Shown here piece after piece: positions 2,938-33,935 of a DNA stretch of 51,047 nt. The stretch covers positions 1 to 51,047 of the forward strand of contig NZ_JAHNZT010000046.1 of the NCBI RefSeq assembly GCF_019039035.1, read 5' to 3'. The stretch is from Citreicoccus inhibens. GTDB lineage: Bacteria > Myxococcota > Myxococcia > Myxococcales > Myxococcaceae. The notes beneath the pieces are model-generated. The model did no database searches and was not told the origin of the DNA. It worked only from the letters and a program-made list of their open reading frames with translations. The position numbers were made by a program, and so were the translations under genes. How positions within the stretch are numbered: the first letter of the stretch is position 1; the number at the start of each line of letters is the position of its first letter.

Positions 2938-2975
2938 AAGCGGCCCGTACCGACATGCCGGTACGAGCCGCTTGC
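2938..2975 (-). terminator. Stem-loop terminator downstream of the pentapeptide-repeat gene
   Basis: CAAGCGGC..GTACCG pairs with CGGTAC..GCCGCTTG around ACATG. On the minus strand it lies ~30 nt past the stop of the pentapeptide-repeat gene and is followed by TCGTTTC, a weak T-rich tail. It separates that gene from the FAD oxidase downstream. Confidence 0.6.
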
Positions 2976-30580: not shown

Positions 30581-32451
30581 ATGCGGTGTGGCGCGTGGGT
30601 CGTGATGCTCGCGGGACTGTTGATGGCATTTCCTGGCGTTGCGGCGGAGTCGTCGCTCCCCTCCGTGGACCTGGGCGTCCGCGAGGTGGACGCAGGAAGC
30701 CTGGCGCTCATCAGCCGGCGCACGGACGCGGACTGGTGGGCGCTGTCCCGGGTGGGGTCTGAAGTCGGGACGGGGCACCCACGCAAGACGCTCCACGTGT
30801 TCCGCAGCTCGAATGCCGGCCGCTCCTGGCAAGAGGATGTGGAGGCGACGGGGGCCGTGGCAGGGGGGGCGACTCCCGAGATCCTTCGAACGGGTCGCAG
30901 ACCAACCCGGAAGTCGATTTCCTCGTCTGGTTGACACCCAGGATTGGTGTCATGGCGGGGTACATGGGTGCGGAGGTGCTGCGCACCACCGATGCGGGGC
31001 GGACCTGGGGCAGCGTGAAGCTTCCGTTCGATGACAAACTCTGGGTCTATGACCTGGAGCGGGCCGAGGGGCGGACATGGTTGTGCGGCTCGTCCGGGAA
31101 CATCTACCGCAGCGATGACTCCGGAGCCTCCTGGGAGCAGCTGAAGGGGGCTCCCTTCGATCAGGATGACCGCTGCATGGACCTCTCCTTCCTGAGCCCG
31201 TTGCGTGGCTGGGCCTTGGGGATGAAGGGCTCCTTGTGGGCGACGGAGGACGGAGGGGCATCATGGCGTCGCATGGAGTCTCCCGGCCAGACGGACCCGA
31301 TGCTGAGCGGGGGGCAAACGCCACCTTCCTGGGATTTGCGCCATGTGGCTCTGCTCACACCCCAGGTGGCATGGGTTGAGGGCAGGGCAGGTCGCTTCCA
31401 GACGACGGACGGCGGGAAGACGTGGCACACCCGGCCTTTCGTGCCCAGAGAGGATGAAGCGCCCCCGAGCGTCAGGAAGCAAGAGAATGGCCGGCGGCTC
31501 GTCACCGTGGGGGTGATGGACACGGGCGCTCCGGTGAACACCTGGATGCCATCCTTCGACGAACATGCAGAGGTGATGGGGGACGACACGGTGGTATTGA
31601 TTCGTGGCGACTTCATGAGCACCTATGTGGCCGGCCGCCTCGAGAGGAGTTCCCCGCTCACCATTGCAGGCTCTGGCGTCCTCACGCCGCTCGACGGCGT
31701 GAGCTCGGGCCGGCCGTACGGGTGGTTCGGCTGGAAGGGGGACCAGATCGTTCGGTCCCAAGACCAGGGCCGCAACTGGTTCTCCGTGGGCCGCGTCCCC
31801 GAGGCTCCCCTGCGCACCCTGGCCCTCGCAAAGGACGGCAGGCTCTTCGCACAGACGCAGGCCGAGAGTCTCTTCCTCTCCTCGGACCTCGGCCGCACCT
31901 GGGAGCGGAGCTGTGCGTGGCTGGATGACTATGACTTCGTCGTGGCGACCGGCGTCTCCCCTGATGGATTGGAGTCACCGCTTCACTGCCTGCTCACTGC
32001 GCCTGAATCCGTGGTGAAGGTGCGGTTCGATATCGCCGGTTGTTTTGGCGGCACGACGAGCCAATTGGAGTTGGAGCTCTCGCAGGGCGATGCGACGCTC
32101 TTGGGCCGGTCGGGCGGTGGAGAGACGCCCCTCGAGGTCCGCTCCCGCAAGCTGAGTCGTGACGAGGGGCAGCGCATCCTCCGCACGCTGGTGGACGCCG
32201 CCACGCGAAAGGAGGCGCCGCTCGATTGTCGCTCCACCACCCGGTATAGAACCATCATCGAGTGGTCCTGTTCGCTGAAGGAGCCGGAGGAGCGGGACGT
32301 GGAGTTCGAGGCTGCTGGCTGTGGGCCACTCATCCGAGTGGACCTCGTCGGTGCAGCAACCTCGTCCGGCACGGCGAGCGCCGAGGGCTATGCGCGCTCA
32401 CTCGGTGTGTACGAGGCCGCGGCCCGCGCGTTGGAAGGTCCTTCGCGCTGA
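30581..32451 (+). pseudogene. YCF48/BNR-repeat exported protein, split by a frameshift in a G tract
   Basis: The ATG at 30581 has GGAGGG 8 nt upstream. MRCGAWVVMLAGLLMAFPG is a signal peptide. The frame runs to a stop at 30934 after HVFRSSNAGRSWQEDVEATG. The other frame, open to 32451, continues QTNPEVDFLVW and VLRTTDAGRTWGSVKLPF, IYRSDDSGASWEQL, LWATEDGGASWRRM, FQTTDGGKTWHT, RSQDQGRNWF: a series of WD40-like BNR/YCF48 blades. The shift maps to seven G's at 30863-30869; one extra G restores a single frame. The whole protein would be ~620 aa and exported. Sequencing error, phase variation or real decay cannot be told apart here. The C-terminal ~150 residues are unique (CRSTTRYRTIIEWSCSL). Confidence 0.8.
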
Positions 32452-32789
32452 GTGGCGCTGCCTGACCCCGGGGCTGGGCCTCAGCCCGGCTCAGGGACGG
32501 AGACGCGCATCGACATCGTCGCCGCCCCTGAGGGTGGTCGCGGATGCGCCTGCTAAACTCGGCTGGCGCCGAGCACGTGCTCGGCGCCCTACTTCACAAG
32601 CCAGAATCCCTCTCCATCACTGCGGCCGTTATGGTGCGCGACTGCATTCCGAGGACGAAGCCATCCTCCAAGCGGATGGTCCGCTATGATTGCCTCTCGC
32701 CGACTCAGGCCCGGTGAGAGCTCATGCAACGGCAAGCGGCCTGATTGCTGCCCATCTGGTGTCTCAACAATCAGGTGCGGTACAGACCA
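32452..32789. other. Intergenic region, no gene seen
   Basis: It follows the YCF48-like gene. CCGAGCACGTGCTCGG near 32569-32584 is a GC-rich inverted repeat that may end the transcript. The minus frame of the kinase remnant continues here but no longer resembles the family. Confidence 0.4.
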
Positions 32790-33050
32790 TTGCGTTCGGC
32801 TGGCCGAGCCTCTGCGCAGTGATGTTGATGGACGCCAGCGAGGGCGCAGTTCGTGCGCGAGCGTCACGAGGACCTCGTCTTCCATCTGGTCGGCCTCCCT
32901 GAACCGCGCTGCCGTGATGAGCGCCTCCTTCTCTGCGCGGCGGCTGCGCAGGCCGGTGGCCACCGTTGCGAGCAACTCCTCGGGCTCGATGGGCTGGCTC
33001 AGGTAGACGTACGACACCACCGCGGGCTGCTCAGCCAGCGCGCGCTCAAA
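32790..33050 (-). pseudogene. Remnant of a hybrid histidine kinase (receiver/dimerisation junction)
   Basis: Minus strand: FERALAEQPAVVSYVYLSQP, then IEPEELLATVATGLRSRRAEKEA and FREADQMEDEVLVTLAHELR. The first part is the C-terminal strand and helix of a receiver domain (the K of KP is S here). LAHELR is the H box with the phospho-accepting His. The ATPase domain is missing and the upstream part is cut at 33050, where the ArsR promoter begins. Confidence 0.7.
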
Positions 33051-33074
33051 CTGCCTTTACATTCCATCTGTCCG

Positions 33075-33110
33075 TATACTAGATACTGAACCACATGGTT
33101 CAGTACCTAG
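33075..33110 (+). promoter_or_regulatory. ArsR-gene promoter with a 32-nt operator palindrome over the start codon
   Basis: TATACT at 33075-33080 is a near-consensus -10; TGCCTT sits 17 nt upstream as a weak -35. Bases 33079-33110 form an inverted repeat: CTAG, one unpaired position, TACTGAACC, loop ACAT, GGTTCAGTA, one position, CTAG. Only 33083/33106 mismatch. The loop contains the AT of the ATG at 33095. A start site ~7 nt after the -10 would leave a leader under 10 nt, and no Shine-Dalgarno site exists, so the mRNA is probably near-leaderless. An ArsR dimer bound here would block both polymerase and the start. Confidence 0.75.
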
Positions 33111-33460
33111 ATGCCGGCCTCGATGCTTCGTTCGCCGCGCTCTCCGACGCCACCCGACGCGGCGTGCTGGAGCAGCTCGGGCGTGCGGAGGCCTCGATCT
33201 CGGACCTCGCCGAGAAGTTCAACATGACCCTCACGGGCATGAAGAAGCATGTCGGTGTCCTGGAGCGGGCCGGGCTCGTGCGCACGGAGAAGGTCGGGCG
33301 CGTGCGGACCTGCAAGATTGGCCCGCGTCGACTGGAGGAAGAGATGGCATGGCTCGACAGGTACCGCCAGCTCTGGGAGGCACGCTTCGACGAGTTGGAC
33401 AAGGTTGTCGAGGAGTTGAAACGGAAGGGGCAGGTCGATGGACGTAAGAAGAGAGAGTGA
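33095..33460 (+). CDS. ArsR-family repressor
   Basis: 121 aa. Winged-helix pattern: DASFAALSDATRRGVLEQLG, ISDLAEKFNMTLTGMKKHVGVLERAGLVRTEKVGR, the classic ArsR/SmtB fold. The metal-binding CxC of arsenic/cadmium sensors is absent, so the signal is not a soft metal bound at that site. The C-terminal helix (LDRYRQLWEARFDELDKVVEEL) forms the dimer. The class is usually paired with an SRPBCC (AHSA1) gene, as here. The 32-nt palindrome over its own start codon points to autorepression. Confidence 0.92.
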   Translation: MVQYLDAGLDASFAALSDATRRGVLEQLGRAEASISDLAEKFNMTLTGMKKHVGVLERAGLVRTEKVGRVRTCKIGPRRLEEEMAWLDRYRQLWEARFDELDKVVEELKRKGQVDGRKKRE

Positions 33461-33470
33461 GCCCATACCC

Positions 33471-33935
33471 ATGAAGAACCGTACGACTGTGGAGCGGAAG
33501 TCCGAGCGTGAGACCGTCGTCACGCGAACTTTCAATGCTCCGGCACGCATTGTGTTCGAGGCGTGGACAAAGCCCGAGCTGTTCAAGAAGTGGTGGTTGC
33601 CGAAGTCAATGGGAATGACCCTGATTGCCTGCGAGATGGATGTTCGTACCGGGGGCACGTACCGTCTGGTGTTCGGCCAAGGGATGGAGTTCTTCGGTAG
33701 GTACACCGAAGTGACACCGCACTCGCGCCTCGTCTGGATCAATGAGGAAGGTGGCGACAATGGGTCCGTCACCACGGTGACCTTCGAGGAAGAAGGGGGC
33801 AAGACGCTGCTGGTCGTGAGCGAGCTCTACAACTCGAAGGAAGCTCTCGATGCTGCCGGCACCGGAGCGGCGGATGCGCTGGTCGAGACGTTCCAGCAGC
33901 TGGACGAGCTCCTCGTCACCCTGGGCGCGAGCTAG
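33471..33935 (+). CDS. SRPBCC/AHSA1-domain protein, partner of the ArsR repressor
   Basis: 154 aa from the ATG at 33471. Typical AHSA1 (START-like) segments: VVTRTFNAPARIVFEAWTKPE, LFKKWWLPK, MDVRTGGTYRLVF, GRYTEVTPHSRLVWIN, FEEEGGKTLLVV, FQQLDELLVTL. The fold binds hydrophobic ligands. A start at 33438 would overlap the ArsR stop by 23 nt; the later ATG is preferred because it begins at the domain and has AGAGAG upstream. The two genes form one operon under the palindromic operator. Confidence 0.92.
   Translation: MKNRTTVERKSERETVVTRTFNAPARIVFEAWTKPELFKKWWLPKSMGMTLIACEMDVRTGGTYRLVFGQGMEFFGRYTEVTPHSRLVWINEEGGDNGSVTTVTFEEEGGKTLLVVSELYNSKEALDAAGTGAADALVETFQQLDELLVTLGAS

What the first reader, a model, noticed from the sequence alone, without database searches (positions are those of the whole stretch)
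33075..33110. 32-nt operator palindrome overlaps the start codon of a near-leaderless ArsR gene
The two arms (CTAG-TACTGAACC / GGTTCAGTA-CTAG) mismatch at a single pair; the ATG begins inside the loop. With a -10 at 33075-33080 and no Shine-Dalgarno site, the same DNA acts as promoter edge, operator and translation start. This makes a tight autoregulatory switch for the ArsR-SRPBCC operon.
Basis: seen in the sequence. Interest (0 to 1): 0.55.

Follow-up and report, generated by a model that had tools for sequence, protein, structure and literature searches.

The report
Repressor operator centred on start codon
A small bacterial repressor gene carries its own predicted DNA switch centred exactly on its first codon, so the switch also dictates the first four amino acids of the protein, and the same layout recurs in related genes across many bacterial phyla.

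Summary
The palindrome is real (33079-33110; 14 of 16 pairs; axis at 33094/33095, directly before the A of the ArsR ATG). Alone it is not very rare: 2 of 30 simulated windows reach its score. Comparison makes the case.

Its core is found in at least 118 genome loci; in 113 of 118 an ArsR gene starts at that ATG. Among 184 ArsR homologues found by protein, 84 have a start-centred palindrome (0.135 expected); 919 control ORFs outside the motif have none. In divergent homologues the half-sites differ, yet non-coding and coding halves change together (permutation z 7.7), so residues 2-4 follow the operator. Synonymous sites of codons 2 and 4 are frozen. Left-arm bases associate best with residues 47, 48 and 50, in the recognition helix.

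The comparative -10 lies inside the left arm (33082-33087, not 33075-33080), predicting a leaderless transcript. The conserved operator is 24 bp (33083-33106); the outer CTAG arms are not conserved.

Best reading: an autorepressor operator with its axis on transcription start and start codon of an ArsR-SRPBCC operon. Binding, autorepression and 5' end are inferred. No paper listed in my searches describes this layout. The signal is unknown.

The parts
33056..33061 (+). -35-like hexamer TTTACA (5/6 to TTGACA), where relatives have a TTG
   Evidence: TTG peak at -38 to -35 in relatives. Spacer to 33082 is 20 nt, longer than in most relatives.
33075..33080 (+).
   Evidence: present; not conserved in the closest relatives (TGTGCT, CATGCT, CGTGCT)
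33082..33087 (+). predicted -10 element GATACT, inside the operator's left arm (-13 to -8)
   Evidence: NATA(C/G)T at this position across operator variants
33079..33110 (.).
   Evidence: outermost four pairs not conserved in relatives
33083..33106 (.). conserved 24-bp operator, family consensus ATACTGAACCATATGGTTCAGTAT, axis at 33094/33095
33095..33097 (+). ATG start codon, right of the axis; predicted transcription start at or one base before 33095 (leaderless)
   Evidence: position of the conserved -10; SD-like 4-mers in 0 of 36, 0 of 67 and 0 of 112 relatives; 5' end not measured
33095..33460 (+). ArsR-family repressor gene, 121 aa
   Evidence: PF12840 46 bits (cut-off 27), NF033788 56.7 (cut-off 55)
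33230..33268 (+). codons 46-58, predicted recognition helix; residues 47-51 track the operator's bases
   Evidence: AlphaFold2 helix 46-58; association ranking; helix sequences by operator class
33438..33935 (+). SRPBCC (AHSA1-type) gene, second gene of the operon; start at 33438 (overlapping arsR) or 33471
   Evidence: PF08327 77.3 bits (cut-off 22.1); partner kept in relatives

Best explanation
The 24-bp palindrome 33083-33106 is the operator of the ArsR protein encoded there. A dimer binds with its twofold axis on the junction -1/+1 of the gene. The left half-site contains the -10 element and the right half-site is codons 1-4 (ATG GTT CAG TAC, Met-Val-Gln-Tyr). RNA polymerase starts at or next to the A of the ATG, so the mRNA is leaderless; bound repressor covers -10, start site and first codons at once and shuts off its own operon, arsR plus an SRPBCC gene. 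Release by an unknown signal gives expression. Because the operator sits in the reading frame, the N-terminal residues are written by DNA recognition, and when a lineage changes its recognition helix, the non-coding half, the coding half and residues 2-4 change together. Shown here: position, conservation, covariation, frozen synonymous sites, association with the recognition helix, gene pairing. Inferred: binding, repression, transcription start, signal.
For:: 113 of 118 genome loci with ACTGAACCNNATGGTTCAGT encode an ArsR from that ATG; with the spacer left free (N4) 86 sites in 1275 genome rows, all 86 with AT at the start-codon place in one orientation; of the 70 loci held, 68 encode ArsR from that ATG; 84 of 184 protein-found homologues start-centred (43 of 43 closest); no other offset has more than 3; half-site covariation in 78 divergent representatives, 4.37 against 3.17 pairs, z 7.7, 0 of 5000 permutations; among homologues at least 55% identical, GTT in 63 of 69 Val at codon 2 against 76 of 541 elsewhere, TAT in 43 of 44 Tyr at codon 4 against 17 of 68.: -10 in left arm, TTG at -36 in 19 of 36 (17-nt spacer), SD-like 4-mers 0 of 36, 67 and 112; residues 47, 48, 50 rank first with left-arm bases (64 rows), 51 and 50 in the 29 rows without the main class. 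SRPBCC downstream 101/101, 65/65, 32/34; residues 1-6 coil. Rv2034, an ArsR with a polyketide_cyc2 partner, footprints -30 to +3 and -26 to +8 at its own gene.
Against: No binding, expression or 5'-end data. The window's own promoter is poor: GATACT with a 20-nt spacer. Its operator has a misfit at 33083/33106, where 96% of motif-selected relatives have T at +12. Most distant homologues are not start-centred (13 of 109 with E above 1e-30 at 8/10 or better), and 29 of those 109 have an 8/10 palindrome upstream (examples), so the layout is a subfamily trait. Of five plasmid homologues looked at, start-centred scores were 9, 7, 7, 6 and 2 of 10. One relative (L416) keeps the palindrome but has ACG in place of the ArsR ATG. 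The association and the tree (39 of 61 inner forks open) do not remove shared ancestry; residues 76 and 90 outside the helix also rank high.
Confidence: 0.83

Rival explanations
1. RNA hairpin: the palindrome acts in the mRNA and hides the start codon (translational control), not as a DNA operator.
For: A transcript -16..+44 would fold strongly, -25.7 kcal/mol; covariation of the two arms fits an RNA stem as well as a DNA dyad.
Against: The conserved -10 lies inside the left arm, so the arm would not be transcribed. G-T misfits are not favoured: 9 of 103 non-Watson-Crick cells, 19.4 of 174.6 expected. Bases track the repressor's own recognition helix.
Confidence: 0.06
2. The conserved N-terminus MVQY is kept for protein function and the DNA similarity is a by-product of protein conservation and horizontal spread.
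For: The best homologue in each of 23 other genomes, fetched from several phyla, is 51-82% identical; a solved relative (3f6o) also begins ..QY.
Against: Synonymous sites are frozen at codons 2 and 4 but not elsewhere; the non-coding left half is conserved too (protein-selected loci) and covaries in divergent relatives; residues 1-6 are coil and the first ten have a mean pLDDT of 68.
Confidence: 0.04
3. The site is an operator, but of another regulator (for example a paralogue), not of the ArsR encoded there.
For: Genomes hold several ArsR paralogues.
Against: Mostly one site per carrying genome (two in 2 of the 41 genomes), and at an ArsR start in 68 of 70 loci held; association with the cis-encoded recognition helix.
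Confidence: 0.05
4. Operator and autorepression as proposed, but transcription starts a little upstream (TATACT at 33075-33080 as -10, leader of about 6-8 nt).
For: TATACT is a 5/6 match in the window.
Against: Not conserved in the nearest relatives; 13-nt spacer to the -35-like hexamer.
Confidence: 0.12

Closest known systems
Rv2034 of Mycobacterium tuberculosis (ArsR family; PMC3338718, passages read)
   Same: Auto-repressing ArsR whose authors favour a non-metal signal; operon with a polyketide_cyc2 (SRPBCC-type) gene; palindrome of two 8-nt arms with 4-nt spacer; footprint reaching the start codon.
   Different: Different half-site (CCGTAAGT); by my reading of the printed footprint the palindrome ends just upstream of the start codon instead of being centred on it; the word leaderless does not occur in the text.
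acuR-acuI-dddL of Rhodobacter sphaeroides (TetR family; PMC3017554, passages read)
   Same: Leaderless autoregulated repressor operon whose transcript starts exactly at the AUG; operator overlaps the promoter.
   Different: TetR family; operator TAATAGAC-N6-GTCTATTA drawn within the 36 bp upstream of the ATG, not in the coding sequence.
lambda cI and Tn1721 tetR (named as leaderless repressor genes in PMC3017554)
   Same: Leaderless mRNA of a repressor gene.
   Different: Other families and operator layouts (recalled, not examined).
PDB 3f6o, ArsR-family protein
   Same: Closest solved relative by sequence, 2.5e-22 over residues 3-107.
   Different: No DNA-bound structure looked for; its recognition helix (ALPSFMKH) resembles that of another operator class.

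Membership tests
ArsR/SmtB winged-helix repressors | HMM score above the curated cut-off | tested here: met
   NF033788 56.7 (cut-off 55), PF12840 46 (cut-off 27); but PF01022 20.8 is under its cut-off of 22
ArsR/SmtB winged-helix repressors | winged-helix fold of about 100 residues | tested here: met
   AlphaFold2 pLDDT 91.4, helices 7-16, 19-30, 35-41, 46-58, strands 62-67 and 70-75, long C-terminal helix 81-120; no fold search was run
metal-sensing ArsR/SmtB | cysteine metal site in the recognition region (ELCVCD-type motif, recalled) | tested here: not met
   a single Cys (73) and a single His (52) in the protein
SdpR autorepressor family (NF033789) | curated cut-off 100 bits | tested here: not met
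   50.2 bits
autoregulated ArsR-SRPBCC operons (Rv2034-like) | SRPBCC gene directly downstream | tested here: met
   PF08327 77.3 bits at 33438-33935; 101/101 and 65/65 relatives with enough sequence
autoregulated ArsR-SRPBCC operons (Rv2034-like) | repressor binds its own promoter | not testable with these tools
   only indirect:
leaderless repressor operons | mRNA begins at the AUG | tested here: inconclusive
   -10 position and absence of SD-like 4-mers agree; no 5' end measured

The most novel reading that the evidence does not exclude
Across a large ArsR subfamily in many phyla the twofold axis of the autoregulatory operator coincides with transcription start and start codon. The repressor's first residues are thus encoded by its own binding site, and specificity changes need three linked changes: recognition helix, non-coding half-site, and coding half-site with its N-terminal peptide. 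Each such gene carries its own operator at a fixed coordinate, a portable gene-plus-switch unit and a natural data set for a wHTH recognition code.
Probability: 0.75. Interest if true: 0.72.

Novelty: new variant of a known kind. Interest (0 to 1): 0.62.

Why it matters
Autoregulated repressors with operators near the start codon are known. What I did not find described is an operator whose axis sits on the start codon as a conserved layout of a whole protein subfamily, so that DNA recognition dictates the protein's N-terminus. It makes the recognition code of ArsR-type winged helices readable from single genes (helix and operator in one gene), gives a rule for correct start-codon annotation, predicts that a synonymous change in codons 2-4 derepresses, and offers a clean case of selection acting on protein letters through DNA binding.

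Tried and rejected
Outer CTAG arms as part of the operator: rejected, positions +13 to +16 carry 0.06-0.18 bits in 112 relatives. The palindrome as significant by itself: rejected, 2 of 30 simulations reach it. Other sites in the genome: none at up to 3 mismatches. Start-centred palindromes as a general habit of repressor genes: 0 of 30 TetR loci of the own genome (30 of 35 matches held; 24 had a candidate start). Viral contigs: 2 sites; no ArsR ORF could be shown, in L150 the frame stops after 3 codons, in L151 the stretch held ends after 8. Literature searches: among the papers listed (at most 30 per search; some hit lists were longer) no title or abstract start describes this motif or layout; the library lacks most subscription journals, and supplementary tables could not be read, so published start-site tables (for example Sinorhizobium meliloti, PMC3616915, passages) were not checked gene by gene. 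The Brucella ArsR6 paper (PMC8509827, passages) gave no motif in the passages seen.

Full report
What is there. The window is contig C64 of a 9.0-Mb genome; no name is given for it. At 33079-33110 lies CTAGATACTGAACCACATGGTTCAGTACCTAG. Its axis is 33094/33095, the junction between the last upstream base and the A of the ATG of a 121-aa ArsR-family gene (33095-33460). An SRPBCC (AHSA1) gene follows, from 33438 or 33471 to 33935. Fourteen of sixteen pairs match. Thirty simulated windows gave a best score of 14 twice, and the window has another 14/16 site at 2955/2956, so the palindrome needs outside support.

Support from relatives chosen by the motif. In 113 of the 118 the ORF from the ATG in the motif is an ArsR homologue; the five others are L036, L055, L084 (end of the stretch), L105 and L116. 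The 112 distinct proteins come from 12 named phyla, led by Pseudomonadota 58, Acidobacteriota 16, Gemmatimonadota 11, Actinomycetota 10 and Myxococcota 7, one without a phylum; many records are metagenome-assembled (titles). That pattern presupposes an ATG, so I repeated it with a free N4 spacer: 33 of 195 genomes of the window's own phylum, one site each, the reversed control pattern in one genome; 3 of 289 genomes of the class of G196; 41 of 395 of the phylum of G217, 43 sites; 7 of 396 of the phylum of G197. G196, G217 and G197 are the centres of their samples and were known carriers, as was G214. All 86 sites have AT at the start-codon place in one orientation (read from the tables), where about one in eight would by chance. 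Of the 70 loci held, 68 encode ArsR from that ATG; L426 runs off its stretch, and L416 has ACG in the ArsR frame (its AT lies on the other strand), the frame continuing to an ATG four codons on.

Support from relatives chosen by protein. I took 186 loci found with the protein only, the window's own among them; 184 had a usable start. Palindromes of 8 or more of 10 pairs (positions 3-12 from the axis) lie at offset 0 in 84 loci and in at most 3 at any other offset; 0.135 are expected at offset 0 with shuffled flanks. By similarity: 43 of 43 (E below 1e-50), 17 of 20, 11 of 12, then 4 of 22, 5 of 43, 3 of 27, 1 of 10, 0 of 7. So close relatives have it and distant ones mostly not; 29 of the 109 distant ones have an 8/10 palindrome between -50 and -3 instead, several of the AACCAATTGGTT kind. 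Controls: 3 of 922 other ORFs, all three at the motif by which the loci were fetched; 0 of 30 TetR loci. Of five plasmid homologues looked at (of 60 listed), Rhizobium lentis scores 9, two Sinorhizobium meliloti 7 and 6, Halomontanus rarus 7, Nostoc 2.

The coding half follows the operator. Outside the main class the half-site differs, for example TTCAACC/GGTTGAG (MVE), AGTTAACC/GGTTAACT (MVN), AGTAAACC/GGTTTACC (MVY), AGTTAAG/CTTAACT (MLN), AGTTAGGC/GCCTAACC (MPN). In 78 representatives under 75% identity without ATGGTTCAG, not selected for a palindrome, the mean is 4.37 of 10 pairs against 3.17 when upstream halves are dealt out anew (0 of 5000 reach it, z 7.7), and 2.2-2.6 when slid by 1-2 bases; the signal sits at positions 4-9 and, weaker, 11. 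Within the ATGGTTCAG class there is no such excess (8.51 against 8.49), as expected of a fixed site. Synonymous sites are frozen, counted in homologues at least 55% identical to the window's ArsR: Val codon 2 is GTT in 63 of 69 against 76 of 541 elsewhere; Tyr codon 4 is TAT in 43 of 44 against 17 of 68, the one TAC being the window's own; Gln codon 3 is CAG in 68 of 68 against 191 of 248. On a quick tree of 64 start-centred representatives (N-terminal residues left out) the main class with three variants is one group of 38 (SH-aLRT 98) and the right hexamer changes at least 24 times, but 39 of 61 inner forks are open, and these rows were chosen for a palindrome of 7/10 or better.

Who binds. 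Ranking alignment columns by association with bases of the non-coding left arm puts residues 47, 48 and 50 first among 64 rows, and 51 and 50 first among the 29 rows without the main class. They lie at the start of helix 46-58 in the AlphaFold2 model (pLDDT 91.4), the recognition helix of this fold (recalled). By eye the classes are TLTGMKKH with GAACC, AVVQH with AAG, SFMKH with AGC/ATC, AVSKH with TCAACC. Shared ancestry inflates such rankings, and residues 76 and 90 also rank high.

Promoter and 5' end. Over 36 start-centred relatives outside the main class (chosen at 7/10 or better), -12 to -8 reads A(91%) T(83%) A(88%) C/G T(100%), a -10 element inside the left arm; TTG starts at -36 in 19 of 36, a 17-nt spacer. 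In the main class TTG peaks at -38 (50 of 111 motif-selected, 21 of 67 protein-selected; 19-nt spacer). SD-like 4-mers between -18 and -4: 0 of 36, 0 of 67, 0 of 112. This places the start at or one base before the ATG. In the window the -10 is GATACT (33082-33087) and the -35-like TTTACA is 20 nt away, so its promoter looks weak. mRNAs starting exactly at AUG are established for acuR (PMC3017554, passages) and for 171 S. meliloti start sites (PMC3616915, passages).

Against an RNA stem: the left arm would not be transcribed, and G-T misfits are not favoured (9 of 103 misfits; 19.4 of 174.6 expected).

Partner and signal. An SRPBCC ORF follows in 101 of 101 motif-selected, 65 of 65 ATGGTTCAG, 32 of 34 other start-centred and 67 of 77 remaining loci; 19 loci with too little sequence were left out. 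The ArsR has one Cys and one His, so a classical metal site is unlikely; the inducer is unknown.

Comparison. Rv2034 (PMC3338718, passages) is the nearest characterised system I saw: auto-repressing, SRPBCC-type partner, palindrome next to the start codon. The present layout differs in that the axis is on the start codon and the coding sequence is half of the operator. I rate it a new variant of a known kind. All functional claims are comparative; nothing here measures binding, repression or the 5' end.

Noticed in passing
window 2938-2973: Another 14-of-16 palindrome (centre 2955/2956), not explained.
   Followed up: no
window 32565-32588: G+C-rich inverted repeat GGCGCCGAGCACGTGCTCGGCGCC shortly after the end of ORF 30931-32451; terminator-like.
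   Followed up: no
window 32589-33020, - strand: ORF that by eye resembles the end of a response-regulator domain and the start of a histidine-kinase domain, but has no Pfam match; possibly a remnant.
   Followed up: no
L416 around 1501-1520: Operator kept perfect but the ArsR start codon reads ACG; translation could start four codons further on.
   Followed up: partly
L405 988-1020: A haloarchaeal plasmid (Halomontanus rarus) has an ArsR-SRPBCC neighbourhood with a 7-of-10 start-centred palindrome, so the layout may reach archaea.
   Followed up: partly
L198, L199, L210, L216, L221: Distant ArsR paralogues with AACCAATTGGTT-like palindromes upstream of the start codon instead of on it.
   Followed up: no
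operators with ATAT centre, e.g. L057, L061: The perfectly symmetric core has an ATG on both strands; long ORFs opposite to the ArsR gene start there in these two loci; their conservation was not examined.
   Followed up: no
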